Shown: positions 1-5,879 of the stretch, piece by piece
Layout: each line of letters opens with the position of its first letter
Position numbering within the stretch: the stretch's first letter is position 1
From: Glutinoglossum americanum
Lineage: Eukaryota > Ascomycota > Geoglossomycetes > Geoglossales > Geoglossaceae
Reading direction: 5' to 3'
Assembly: GCA_020080175.1 (NCBI GenBank)
Contig: JAGHQL010000129.1
Location: forward strand, 8,009 to 72,008
DNA length: 64,000 bases
Notes under the pieces: model-generated
What the model was told of the DNA's origin: nothing
Database searches by the model: none
What the model saw: the letters and a program-made list of their open reading frames with translations, nothing else
Program-made: the position numbers and the translations under genes

Positions 1-2588
1 CGTTGACATTGGCCCCCTTCTCGAGCAGCCGCCGGACGACCTGGTCGTGGCCTCCGTACGAAGCCGCCTGCAGCGCGTTGGCATTGGCCCCCTTCTCGAG
101 CAGCCGCTGGACGACCTGGTCGTGGCCTCCGTACGAAGCCGCCTGCAGCGCGTTGCCGTACCACCCACCCTGCGCGTTGGCTTCGGCCCCCTTCTCGAGC
201 AGCCGCTGAACGACCTGGTCGTGGCCTCCGTACGAAGCCGCCTGCAGCGCATTAGTGTACCACCCACCCTGCGCGTTGGCTTCGGCCCCCTTCTCGAGAA
301 GCCGCTGGACGACCTGGTCGTGGCCTCCGTACGAAGCCGCCTGCAGCGCGTTGCCGTACCACCCACCCTGCGCGTTGGATTCGGCCCCCTTCTCGAGCAG
401 CCGCTGGACGACCTGGTCGTGGCCTTTGTACGAAGCCGCCTGCAGCGCGTTGCCGTACCGTCCGCCCTGCGTGTTGGCATCGGCCCCCTTCTCGAGCAGC
501 AGTCTGACTGACTCAATTAAGCCAGCCAGTGACGCGTAGTACAGTGGAGGGGCGACTTTCTCCAGACCCTTAGTTATTTCTGGCCCTTGCCATGGCTCAT
601 CTAGATCGAAAAGCCGGACCCAATTGACATAGGCATCTCTCTTGGACCAAAAAAGCTGGATAATCAGTTGGTGGATTGTTTCCGCATCCCCTTCAGCCGC
701 TCGAGCATGTTGAGTCCAGTACTCCGCTGCATACCTAGCCAGTGGATATTCCTCGGTGGTTTGACGTGTCAAACAATTGGCTTTGTCAAACTGTAAAAGA
801 TATGCAAGGCAGATCTCGCCTATAGATGCATTTGCAGGTATCTCCTGAATGCTGTACTGACGCGCTGGTCCATTTTGAATTCGCTCCGACACAAGATACT
901 CCTTGACAGAGAAATGGGCTAGCTTGATCTCCACTCCAGCTATAGTGACCAAACTAGAACATATTTCCAGGATGTCTTGTGGGTCCGGAAGTCGACTCTC
1001 GGGGTCAAATCGGGGACCGCCGTCACCATAGACTGCAATAGCGTCGACAATCTCGCCGATTCGCAGCGGCCGAGCAGAGTAGACCAGCCACTGCAGGATT
1101 TTGAAGGCATCTTGGCTATATTCTTTGTGGATGGCACACAAAATACGATCATATGTACCGTCCAATGTATCTGGCAGACGTTCCAGTGCTTCCCGAAGCT
1201 TACGAAGATTAAGGCACCTCCCTAATGCATCAAGCTGGCACACAGCCCATCGAAACCTGGCTTGGTGCATGAGCGTTCTCAAACTCCTTGAAAGGGTAAA
1301 GGATGTAATCTTACATTCCGTCAGCTTTGCCCATCAGCTTCGTCTCAATTTCCTGTTGCACCTCTGGCTTGCCCCGCCACCTTTTTAGATTTTGATCACT
1401 CTGGAGTCTTTTTTGAATGTATACTCGAATATCATCACTCACGAGCGTACTCTGAATGCAGATTTTTCCTTGGCCATTGATTAGAGAATCAAGTGACTCT
1501 TCAATATCTTTCTCTCTTCGACTAGTGGCTAGTATATGCAACTTTTCTGTATTCCATCCAATGATCTTACTAATATCTTCCAGAAGCTCTTGTCTTTCTT
1601 CACATTCATCTAGAGCGTCGAGAATAACAAAAATCCCGTCAAATTCGCGAATCATTTGTTGCAGAGTCGTCAGAAGTGCGTCAGATGTTGGTTGCCGCTC
1701 CCCGTCCGTACAGGAAGAGAACAGGGTCGCAAGGACTCTAGGTGTACTTTTGTACCGTAAGGAGAGTTGCATAATAAGCGAACGTACCATTTTCTCATAT
1801 TGCTGCTTTTCGACATCGTTGAAATCAAAGTAGAAATAGATAACCACCATAGTAGGGTCGTGATGACAATGGTAGAGAACATCTTCGATGATAGTGGAGC
1901 TCAGAATAGTTTTTCCACATCCAGGAATACCATGGAGCCAGAGAAACGAGCCAGAGTTCGTTTTCCAATTAGTATACTGTTTGCTGTTGATAAACCAGGT
2001 GCCGGTTCCTGCTTGCCTCTCTCTGAGTGCTTTATTGTAGTTAAACCATGGATCCGGTGCTGATAGCCACCGGTGAATCCTTTTACGATTATCATCTATA
2101 CCATACAGGTCAGCATTTTCCCCAAAGAAAGAAGTCTGGCGAGTACCAATTGAAGAGCCGGTGGCTTGATGATATGTTAATGTCTGAACATAATTTCGGA
2201 AAGTCGTTGTTATTTGCTGAATTTTCTTCTCTTGGGCAATGCTTGAGAGAGCCTTCTTTCCTCTTCTCCATGATGAGTCACCCTTTGATGGTAACGTCTC
2301 TTCCAAGACATCATCAAGCTGCTCCACCTGCGATTGACAGCCCTTCACAACGCTCCATATTGCTTCTTGGGTATCCTTGCTAAAGTGGCCATCCTCCGTT
2401 TGTTTCTTTGTCCGCTCAATAGTATCAACTAATAGTGGTAGCTCGATTTTGATATCTCGAAAGGATTTCGGAACTTCATCCAGGCTAGAATGGAACTCGT
2501 TGAGTCGATGCACAATCTTTGAGCTAAAATCGACAAACTGAACTATGGATGAGACGAGGCCAACAATAGCAAGGGCTTCTACCATCAT
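1..2588 (-). CDS. NACHT-ankyrin STAND (NLR-like) protein, C-terminus beyond window
   Basis: Fungal NOD-like receptor of the kind linked to non-self recognition and heterokaryon incompatibility. Exon 1 is 2588-1315 and exon 2 is 1256-1 (continuing off the window), with a 58-bp GT-AG intron at 1314-1257. Splicing restores the family-typical KADGMFRWAVCQLDAL stretch. Residues 1-140 are a helical N-terminal domain (VSSIVQFVDFSSKIV) like those that precede fungal NACHT domains (SesA/HeLo-like class, inferred). The P-loop GIPGCGKT is at 220-227 and Walker B FVILDALDEC at about 320-329. A winged-helix-like region follows (LPDTLDGTYDRIL, AHFSVKEYL). Ankyrin units start near base 560 and run to the edge. 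Exon 2 is open throughout, so at least 840 residues look intact. I take the start at 2588 because the N-terminus aligns with family starts; the next Met is one codon later. The exact effector class is uncertain. The family assignment is firm. Confidence 0.93.
20..520 (-). repeat. Near-identical 99-bp ankyrin-coding tandem repeats with one 75-bp unit
   Basis: CTCGAG recurs at 20, 95, 194, 293, 392 and 491, giving spacings of 75, 99, 99, 99 and 99 bp. Each 99-bp unit codes on the minus strand for one 33-residue ankyrin repeat (core NALQAASYGGHDQVVQRLLE). Units are almost identical in DNA. The differences cluster around the GA-x-x-N and GGWY-x-N positions. The 75-bp unit lacks 24 bp and remains in frame. 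More units may lie left of the window. Confidence 0.95.
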
Positions 2589-3189
2589 AGGTGAGAAGGC
2601 CTGTATTACAGACTAATCGATGTTAGATAGAAGCCCCACCTGCAATCCCTCGCTTAACTTACTGCCGTCATCTGACCCTGCAACAATTAACGAGCTTGCC
2701 ATACATTTCTGTACGCTTGGTACAGCCCAAGAGTTACTCTATCTGTCCACATCAGGTATTTCACTCTCTAGTTCTGGGGCGGGATATAAACTTAATAAAA
2801 TCTTTATTGGGAAATTGTCTGAAGGCTAGCCATATAACCATGATATAGATATGTAACGCAGCAGTACATAGTATAAAATTAATATATAATAGTTATTTTT
2901 TATAATTTGCATGTATCCGTTAAACCCTTATAATGTCATCTAATCTTGTAAATAATATGATTTACATTAGAAGACAAACTAGTATTAAGATGATCATATA
3001 AGCTTTCATTAATATTTATTCTATATACTATATTCTAGGAGATTATTATAATAATTAGCCTTATAAGTGTTGCAAGGGTTAAGTCATTAATATTATCTGA
3101 CCATTGTATTGTTACTATTGTAAATACTACTCCATTTGTTCTTTGTAATATAGCAATAGTTTCTTTTCCTTTGACTATATGTTACGGGT
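2589..3189. other. Gene-free stretch with AT-rich, TA-dinucleotide-rich block (about 2830-3190)
   Basis: No credible coding region. Bases 2589-2830 are the 5' flank of the NACHT-ankyrin gene. From about 2830 to 3190 the sequence turns strongly AT-rich with many TA steps and almost no GC-rich words, unlike every other stretch here. This resembles a repeat eroded by repeat-induced point mutation, but no terminal repeats or transposase remnant can be recognised. Confidence 0.5.
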
Positions 3190-3674
3190 TTATCCTATAA
3201 TACTGGTGCTTCCGAATGAGCTAGGTTGGCCTCTGGAGGGTAGTGAAGTGGCCGTCCTTGCCCAGGACAGGATATGGTCTTCGACCACGATTGTACAACC
3301 ACCGAGAATCTGAATTTCCCGAGACTGCGTTACTGGAGCCCCACTAAGACCCCGCATTATGCCTGCCTCGATAATAGCAGTCCGAGGACTAAGGTTCCAA
3401 GCTTCCAGCGCAGTGCAGCAGACGAGAATGCTTGCAACGCACGTTTGCCACTTGAGAGCCTCGTCCGACAATGGACCACTCCATACCACTGCATCCACGC
3501 GGATGGGATCCTTGATGTCGGGGGGCTTGCCCCACAAAGGCCAAGTACATTGAGACGGCGCAGATAACATGGACGAGAGTATGAATCTCCGAGAGCGAGG
3601 GTGGGGAGACTTTCAGCTTTCCTTGCGCTAACTTGGACGACAAGGAAGAGGACTTGGATGAACGAGACCATTAG
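3190..3674 (-). pseudogene. Frameshifted relic of a fungal membrane-protein family
   Basis: Two adjoining minus-strand frames read as one protein of a fungal multi-pass membrane family that I recognise only by style. The first frame (about 3674-3540) gives SLSEIHTLVHVICAVSMYLA. The second (about 3550-3190) continues with KPPDIKDPIRVDAVVW and SGPLSDEALKWQTCVASILV. Related proteins usually read HTLAHV..MYLLWW.KP.D..DP without a break, so a single-base shift seems to lie around 3540-3555 at a G/C-rich run. No intact start or end is visible. Its position beside the AT-rich block suggests decay in an accessory region. A short intron in place of the frameshift cannot be excluded. Confidence 0.45.
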
Positions 3675-4569: not shown

Positions 4570-5879
4570 CTACCCACAGTATATCAATTGACTACATTCT
4601 TGCGCTGTACATCTGGAGCCCGTAGAAACAGGGACGCAACGCCCAGTAGCATCCATCACACAACTCTCTTCGCAACACTTAGTAGGATTGCCGACGGTGT
4701 GCCAACCCAAAAGACAACACTCGGAGCCATTGAGCAGCTCGCTACCGGCCGGACAGCACACCCACGGCCCATTCTTCGGATCATTCGCAATGCATTCCGA
4801 CTCCCAGGTGTGTCCACCTACTCCGTGCTCGTAGTAGCAGCACTTGGGCCCGCAGCCTTTGAGGCGGTCCGGAGTGCAGCAGAGTTTACCAGTAGTGCAG
4901 GTTGAGGGGTTCGCTGGATCACCGGGACAAATAGTCCCAGGCGCGCAAGCAGGTGAAGCGACACAGGCATCACTCGCTCCATTTGTTCCTTTCGCGCAAG
5001 CCCAGACATCCGTCAGGTTGTCGTCTGGGCAGCAAGTCGAGCCGCACATCCTCTCCGGGGCACAACATCCTACGGTGCTTCCGTACCACAGCGTGCCTTC
5101 CGGACAGCACAGCCTGAAATGCATCCCATGAGCTCGCTCCCGAGGGCAACATTTACCATCATGGATTCGGAATGACGGGCAACAATCGCCACGTCCGTTG
5201 GTATCGCAAGGTGTGCCAATAGGACAGAGCGTCGGTCGGGTCCCAAGGCCTATCACTGCGGGCCAACATTCGTTAGTGGTTGCGACGCATTCTCGTCGGA
5301 CGGGGTCGTAGTTGTATTGATGGTAGGCGTCATCCGGAGGACAGCAGACTTTGGAGAGCCCGTCTGAGTGAGACCGCTCTGGAGGGCAACAGCCCTCGCC
5401 GGATGTATCGCATGGCGTTAAGAAGCTACAACAACTACGTCCACAGCTTTTCATTCCCCTGAGGAGACAATGGGGAATGGGGATTTGCCAGGGAAATGGC
5501 CAGGGAAGCGGTAGCCAGGGAAGCGAGGGATCCGGTAGCCAGGGGAATGGCGGCCACCAAGCTGGGTTCAAGGGAGGCGGTGGTGGTGTTGATTTTCGCG
5601 GTATGCATCCTTGAGTTTTATCGCACACCTCTAGGACAGGTTCACAGCAGGCGTGAACGGCTGCGTTACTAGAGGAATCCAAGTACTCGCAAGGGAGCTC
5701 AAAACGTTCGCAGCAAACCTTCCCATCAGGGCATGCTAACATTTGTCAGTCGCAAAACGTCGGAACGTATACGTGGGTACGTGTAGCATACTTCCAGCAA
5801 GGGACCGCGCCGCATCGGCGACGAGAAAACTCCACAAAAGGATCTGAAGCAACGGTTTCAAAGAGAAATGGGTCTGCAT
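4570..5879 (-). CDS. Secreted CC-rich (granulin-like) protein with Pro/Trp hinge
   Basis: Exon 1 is 5879-5792 and exon 2 is 5735-4570, with a 56-bp intron (gtatgc...ttag), giving 417 residues. Exon 1 codes for a clear signal peptide (MQTHFSLKPLLQILLWSFLV, then ADA). The mature protein opens with CPDGKVCCERFELPC, then has a Pro/Trp-rich spacer (PPPPPLNPAWWPPFPW, LPWLPLPWPFPW), then about 280 residues dense in paired cysteines. At least three units share a CC-P-x-E-R...CCP pattern (CCPPERSH, CCPRERAH, CCAPERM). Paired-cysteine spacing recalls granulin or carbohydrate-binding folds, but no family is certain. It is likely extracellular or wall-associated and disulfide-rich. No neighbour suggests a pathway. 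The joining codon (GGA ACA TGC) fixes the splice frame. Confidence 0.8.

What the first reader, a model, noticed from the sequence alone, without database searches (positions are those of the whole stretch)
1..2588. NLR-like gene with nearly identical ankyrin repeats, a candidate non-self recognition locus
The ankyrin units are almost identical in DNA, while the rest of the gene shows normal divergence in sequence texture. Differences concentrate at two or three positions per unit. Highly internally conserved repeats in fungal STAND proteins are known to evolve by unequal exchange and to vary between strains (established for WD40 HNWD genes and reported for ankyrin and TPR NLRs). The gene is intact as far as it is visible. 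Strain-to-strain changes in repeat number and in these positions would make it a polymorphic immune-type receptor.
Basis: partly seen in the sequence, partly recalled or inferred. Interest (0 to 1): 0.75.

Follow-up and report, generated by a model that had tools for sequence, protein, structure and literature searches.

The report
Fungal immune-type receptor, near-identical repeats
The window starts inside a fungal gene for an NLR-type (immune-receptor-like) protein whose ankyrin repeats are almost identical copies, as in a known class of fast-evolving fungal recognition genes; it is a good example of a known kind, not a new system.

Summary
On the minus strand, 2588 to 1 encodes 843 visible residues without a stop: SesA domain, NACHT-type NTPase, then ankyrin repeats, with one 58-nt intron. 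Four full 33-aa units are 92% identical in DNA; a fifth has lost 24 nt. The array runs off the window, and the 8008 bases to its left read N, so its length is unknown.

The same genome holds a large family: matches to this unit lie on 16 contigs. In six arrays compared, units group by gene and one paralogue has DNA-identical units. Related NACHT-ankyrin genes carry other N-termini. These are known features of fungal NLRs with 'high internal conservation' (Dyrka et al. 2014).

The polymorphic-receptor claim is only partly supported. Amino-acid differences concentrate at putative binding positions, but four other ankyrin arrays of this genome, at least two of them probably NLRs too, show the same bias, and this gene shows no dN/dS above 1. 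No second strain is held, and repeat numbers in a fragmented assembly are unreliable. New member of a known kind.

The parts
1315..2588 (-). Exon 1 of the NLR gene, from ATG (2588): SesA domain and NACHT-type NTPase
   Evidence: Open frame, start and splice site; domains
1257..1314 (-). Intron of 58 nt, GTAAGA...CCAG (inferred)
   Evidence: Joins two overlapping frames into one uninterrupted reading...KADGM|FRWAV.... Paralogues C198 (L032), C112 (L034), C231 (L035) and C268 (L036) also change frame at this place, seen in the ORF lists. No transcript data
1..1256 (-). Exon 2, open at the window edge: rest of NOD region and ankyrin array
   Evidence: No stop to the edge; bases further left read N
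2178..2555 (-). SesA domain (PF17107), N-terminal effector-type domain
   Evidence: Pfam E=2.7e-22, 79.6 bits, cut-off 26.3; coordinates converted from residues 20-145
1518..2009 (-). NPHP3_N/NACHT NTPase domain, with GIPGCGKT P-loop and VILDALDEC Walker-B-like motif
   Evidence: Pfam NPHP3_N E=7.4e-46, NACHT E=8.9e-07; motifs read, motif names recalled
875..1102 (-). GPIID_WHD winged-helix-like region after the NTPase
   Evidence: Pfam E=2.5e-04, 21.9 bits, below its cut-off of 27: weak
104..499 (-). Four 33-aa ankyrin units, 92% identical in DNA
   Evidence: Pfam Ank_2 E=8.8e-57
29..103 (-). 25-aa ankyrin unit lacking 24 nt (8 residues of the hairpin region) relative to the others
   Evidence: Unit split; two GCGCGTTG direct repeats at the ends of the missing stretch in the full units, read
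1..28 (-). Start of a further unit, cut by the window edge

Best explanation
This is a fungal STAND/NLR receptor of the class with high internal repeat conservation. The ankyrin array is the sensor: a ligand binds its concave/hairpin face, the NACHT domain then exchanges nucleotide and oligomerises, and the SesA domain (a distant relative of the pore-forming HeLo domain) acts as the death-inducing output. Units are duplicated, lost and homogenised within the gene by unequal exchange or gene conversion, so the sensor surface can change quickly. Shown here: domain order, intact visible frame, unit identity, grouping of units by gene, identical unit copies in a paralogue, other N-termini on related NACHT-ankyrin parts. 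Inferred: splicing, ligand binding, oligomerisation, cell death, variation between strains.
For: Domains. Four units at 92.4% DNA identity. Genome-wide, 84 matches to the unit on 16 contigs, its own included, and 103 matches to the exon-1 protein, its own included. FastTree of 70 units from 6 genes: 5 gene-label changes, the minimum for six genes, against a shuffled mean of 43.9 and minimum of 35 in 500 shuffles. In C11, units 4=5=6, 2=7 and 9=10 are identical in DNA. The nearest NACHT relatives (C198 64%, C286 64%, C112 63%) match only from residue 163-164 on, so the SesA part is not shared; C112 and C231 have PNP_UDP. Nearest SesA relatives (60, 53, 50%) lie in genes whose next frames look NB-ARC/TPR-like (by eye; Pfam gave SesA-NB-ARC-TPR in L046, a 42% relative, and DUF7779 alone in the next frame of L038).
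Against: No second strain, so no polymorphism. dN/dS at the putative binding positions is not above 1 in this gene. The position bias is shared by 4 of 4 other ankyrin arrays (two of them probably NLRs). The C-terminal end is unseen. The SesA model gave no PDB match at E<=0.001, so a HeLo-like fold is not shown.
Confidence: 0.8

Rival explanations
1. An NLR whose array is young: it expanded recently and is near-identical simply because there was no time to diverge, without continuing exchange or selection for a changing sensor.
For: Only four full units are visible here; dN/dS below 1 overall (0.51). The tree fits recent expansion in each gene as well as continuing homogenisation.
Against: All six arrays compared group by gene, including four whose units are only 76-82% identical, and C11 has identical units that are not neighbours (2 and 7), which one simple expansion does not give.
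Confidence: 0.25
2. A NACHT-ankyrin protein with a role other than immunity, for example in secretion or development.
For: A NACHT-domain protein Ncp of Penicillium herquei is reported to act in unconventional secretion (PMC13311144; start of abstract in the search listing only). Of ten neighbouring frames scanned, the eight with Pfam matches are housekeeping or kinase genes, not effector genes.
Against: Highly conserved repeats are specifically enriched in fungal NLRs (PMC4986451, passages); the SesA domain often occurs as an N-terminal effector domain of NLRs (PMC4518210, passages).
Confidence: 0.15
3. The near-identity, repeat count or the short unit is partly an assembly artefact (collapsed or miscopied repeats).
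For: 317 contigs for 25.8 Mb. Unit-family arrays run to the end of contigs C231 (match from base 1) and C28 (match to its last base), and the C198 array runs to the contig end. In Podospora, short-read assemblies omit or create such repeats (PMC12222747, passages).
Against: The four units differ from one another, so they are not simple copies; the reading frame is kept. The sequencing method of this assembly is unknown to me.
Confidence: 0.2

Closest known systems
Fungal NLRs with highly conserved ankyrin repeats, e.g. Podospora Pa_3_8560 and Pa_2_8180 (Dyrka et al. 2014, PMC4986451; abstract, passages and sections 11 and 17 read)
   Same: NACHT plus ankyrin units of high internal conservation, variable residues at hairpin and inner-helix positions
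   Different: Those have PNP_UDP N-termini and measured repeat-number polymorphism between isolates; here the N-terminus is SesA and no other strain is held
Podospora HNWD family (het-d, het-e, het-r; PMC12222747, passages)
   Same: NLR with near-identical sensor repeats and homogenisation of units
   Different: WD40 sensor, genetically shown incompatibility function and known ligand HET-C; none shown here
SesA/HeLo-like NLR effector domains (PF17107)
   Same: Pfam match well above the cut-off, helical model
   Different: No convincing structural match in the PDB; no activity tested
DARPins (designed ankyrin repeat proteins)
   Same: 33-residue units, among the best PDB sequence matches; differing residues overlap the randomised positions (positions recalled)
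   Different: Engineered; the similarity is of the general ankyrin kind, shared with natural ankyrins in the same listings

Membership tests
Fungal STAND NLR | N-terminal effector domain, NACHT or NB-ARC, C-terminal repeats | tested here: met
   SesA, NPHP3_N, NACHT and Ank_2 above Pfam cut-offs
Fungal STAND NLR | Intact P-loop and frame | tested here: met
   GIPGCGKT present, no stop in 843 visible codons; the part left of the window is unseen
NLR with high internal conservation (Dyrka criterion) | Repeats over 85% identical over at least 100 residues | tested here: met
   Four units, 132 residues, mean pairwise aa identity 90.9%; T-REKS itself, used by Dyrka et al., was not run
NLR with high internal conservation | Concerted evolution of units | tested here: met
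   5 gene-label changes on the tree of 70 units, minimum possible; recent expansion in each gene would look alike
NLR with high internal conservation | Positive selection at binding positions | tested here: inconclusive
   dN/dS at six positions: this gene 0.81, C11 1.15, C185 1.04, C41 3.23, C112 1.27, C155 0.84; bootstrap range clear of 1 only in C41; four other arrays share the position bias
NLR with high internal conservation | Repeat-number polymorphism between strains | not testable with these tools
   No relatives held; scans of genome contigs and viral contigs, which hold prokaryotes and viruses, gave no relative
Heterokaryon incompatibility gene | Cell death on fusion of unlike strains | not testable with these tools
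   Needs experiment
HeLo-type pore former | HeLo fold in the N-terminal domain | tested here: inconclusive
   Single-sequence model, mean pLDDT 73.2, helical; 0 PDB matches at E<=0.001

The most novel reading that the evidence does not exclude
The fungus keeps a shared stock of one ankyrin-unit type (matches on at least 16 contigs) under interchangeable effector heads, and diversifies it like a natural DARPin library: a fixed frame with change at hairpin and inner-helix positions, and length change in the hairpin (the 25-aa unit here; 34- and 36-aa spacings in C112). The non-synonymous excess at these positions is 2.2 to 6.2-fold in the six arrays against 1.6 to 2.1-fold in the four other ankyrin arrays, which leaves room for this reading.
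Probability: 0.15. Interest if true: 0.5.

Novelty: new member of a known kind. Interest (0 to 1): 0.3.

Why it matters
Fungal NLRs with near-identical sensor repeats are among the known receptors whose binding surface can be rebuilt by recombination. A genome with a family of related ankyrin sensors on different effector heads is good material for testing how such receptors diversify. The gene itself is ordinary for its class.

Tried and rejected
GC bias from gene conversion: array GC at fourfold sites is 0.82 against 0.46 upstream in this gene, and higher than upstream in all six arrays (only 16 upstream sites in C155), but homogeneity does not predict it: L006, with units about 80% alike, has 0.43, and C11, as homogeneous as this gene, has 0.41 at core fourfold sites against 0.83 here. 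Dropped.

Repeat-induced point mutation: the array's composite index is 0.98, but it is GC-rich (68%) and built of a repeated 99-mer, so I do not trust the index; the AT-rich flank (27% GC) has 0.10. No conclusion.

DARPin-like selection: the share of non-synonymous differences at six positions was 0.42 against 0.18 expected, permutation p=0.0009, synonymous p=0.20, and the true register was best of 33 offsets. Four other ankyrin arrays then showed shares of 0.28-0.34, p 0.0003-0.006. Two of these (L003 on C6, L006 on C51) have a NACHT match just upstream on the same strand and may be NLR sensors too; for L001 and L004 one search lists none nearby. So much of the bias may be general ankyrin tolerance; the fold excess is higher in the six arrays (2.2-6.2) than in the four (1.6-2.1). 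The interface/frame dN/dS ratio has a bootstrap range above 1 in C185, C41, C112 and C155, not in this gene or C11; in the four others it is above 1 in L001 and L003, reaches 1.0 in L004 (212 of 300 replicates unusable) and spans 1 in L006. The exact six positions are recalled; PMC9611651 (passages) gives the number six and the anchor residues T4, P5, H7, G2, G13, G25. PMC8683736 (passages) added nothing on positions.

Structure: the ankyrin model (mean pLDDT 58.3) was too weak to use. The SesA model found no convincing PDB match; sequence search gave 3 matches at E<=1, the best 0.18.

Rows dropped: in the dN/dS tests, the 25-aa unit of this gene, C11 unit 12 (runs into the C-terminus), units failing a pattern filter (C112 13 of 14 kept, C155 12 of 13), and duplicate units (C11 7 unique of 11). 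The pattern also missed some units (spacings of 65 in C185 and C41), so unit numbers there are low. The tree kept C11 unit 12, which sits apart from the other C11 units; the 5 changes include it.

Full report
What is there. The window is G000:C34:8009-72008 of a 25.8-Mb genome in 317 contigs, by its genes a filamentous fungus (inference; the species was not identified). The minus strand from 2588 encodes 843 visible residues: exon 1 (2588-1315), a 58-nt GT-AG intron (1314-1257) and exon 2 (1256 to the edge), without a stop. Pfam finds SesA (E=2.7e-22), NPHP3_N (7.4e-46), NACHT (8.9e-07), a weak GPIID_WHD (2.5e-04, below its cut-off) and ankyrin repeats (8.8e-57).

The array. Four 33-aa units have 92.4% mean DNA identity. 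A fifth lacks 24 nt; in the full units the missing stretch is bounded by two copies of GCGCGTTG (read), and the loss keeps the frame and removes eight residues of the hairpin region. A sixth is cut by the edge. The 8008 bases to the left of the window all read N, so total unit number and C-terminus are unknown; I cannot tell whether that stretch is withheld or a gap.

The family. A 99-base unit query found 84 matches on 16 contigs, the exon-1 protein 103 matches, own gene included in both; the tool calls such counts lower bounds. In six arrays (this gene, C11, C185, C41, C112, C155), mean DNA identity of units within a gene was 0.76-0.92 and between genes 0.62-0.82. A FastTree tree of 70 units gave 5 gene-label changes, the minimum for six genes, against a shuffled mean of 43.9 and minimum of 35. 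In C11 units 4, 5 and 6 are identical in DNA, as are 2 and 7, and 9 and 10. This fits copying and homogenisation of units within genes; recent separate expansion would look similar for the tree, less so for the non-adjacent identical units.

Mosaic architecture. The closest NACHT relatives (C198 64%, C286 64%, C112 63%) match only from residue 163-164 on. C112 and C231 carry PNP_UDP domains at the N-terminus; the N-terminal frames of C198 and C286 have no Pfam match at E<=0.01; the frame tested in C11 has a DUF7708 match below its cut-off. The closest SesA relatives are 60, 53 and 50% identical and lie in genes whose next frames look NB-ARC/TPR-like by eye; Pfam gave SesA, NB-ARC and TPR in L046, a 42% relative, and only DUF7779 in the next frame of L038. 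So the same modules occur in different combinations, as reported for fungal NLRs (PMC4986451, abstract, passages and sections 11 and 17; PMC12258605, passages).

Selection. Differences in amino acid concentrate at six positions that are, from memory, the randomised positions of DARPins: share 0.42 against 0.18 expected, p=0.0009, while synonymous differences do not (p=0.20). But 4 of 4 other ankyrin arrays of this genome show the same bias; two of these have a NACHT match just upstream, so they are not clean controls. The fold excess of non-synonymous differences is 2.2-6.2 in the six arrays and 1.6-2.1 in the four. dN/dS at these positions is 0.81 in this gene (bootstrap 0.59-1.06) and clearly above 1 only in C41 (3.23, 1.98-9.6); at the other positions it is 0.33-0.50 in the six arrays. 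The data show a conserved frame with freer surface positions, and do not establish positive selection here.

Literature. Dyrka et al. report that 10% of ankyrin repeats of fungal NLRs show high internal conservation, that in Podospora such genes vary in repeat number between isolates, and that, with one exception, variable residues map to the inner helices and hairpin/loop. A 2025 Podospora study (PMC12222747, passages) reports that short-read assemblies of such repeats are unreliable; here arrays run to the ends of contigs C231 and C28 and C198. SesA is described as remotely homologous to the pore-forming HeLo domain (PMC4518210, passages); my model of it is helical (mean pLDDT 73.2) without a convincing PDB match.

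Surroundings. Of ten other window frames scanned, eight had Pfam matches at E<=1e-4: NFACT (two frames), Sua5, Rad21/Rec8, a P-type ATPase (two frames), COG4 and a protein kinase. No further effector or receptor gene was recognised among those ten. One search lists 24 largely non-overlapping frames of at least 220 codons; two are the receptor itself, ten were scanned, 12 were not.

Verdict. A real fungal NLR gene with near-identical ankyrin units and a clear family in its own genome. New member of a known kind, interest 0.3.

Noticed in passing
window 4573-5745, minus strand: Open frame of 391 codons rich in CC pairs and proline, without a Pfam match at E<=1e-4; looks like a secreted cysteine-rich protein, by eye.
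   Followed up: partly
L033 (G000:C286:45629-49414): An NLR paralogue whose visible reading ends soon after the NOD region, followed on the same strand by frames that resemble an isocyanide/dityrosine-type synthase by eye; not searched.
   Followed up: no
G000 C231, C28, C198: Arrays of this unit family run to the ends of contigs, as expected if tandem repeats broke the assembly.
   Followed up: partly
L025 (G000:C185): Array of at least 17 units in which non-adjacent units resemble each other (units 3 and 9 93%, 7 and 9 92%, 3 and 11 91%), which may be multi-unit duplications.
   Followed up: partly
window 2760-3200: AT-rich stretch (27% GC) upstream of the gene.
   Followed up: no
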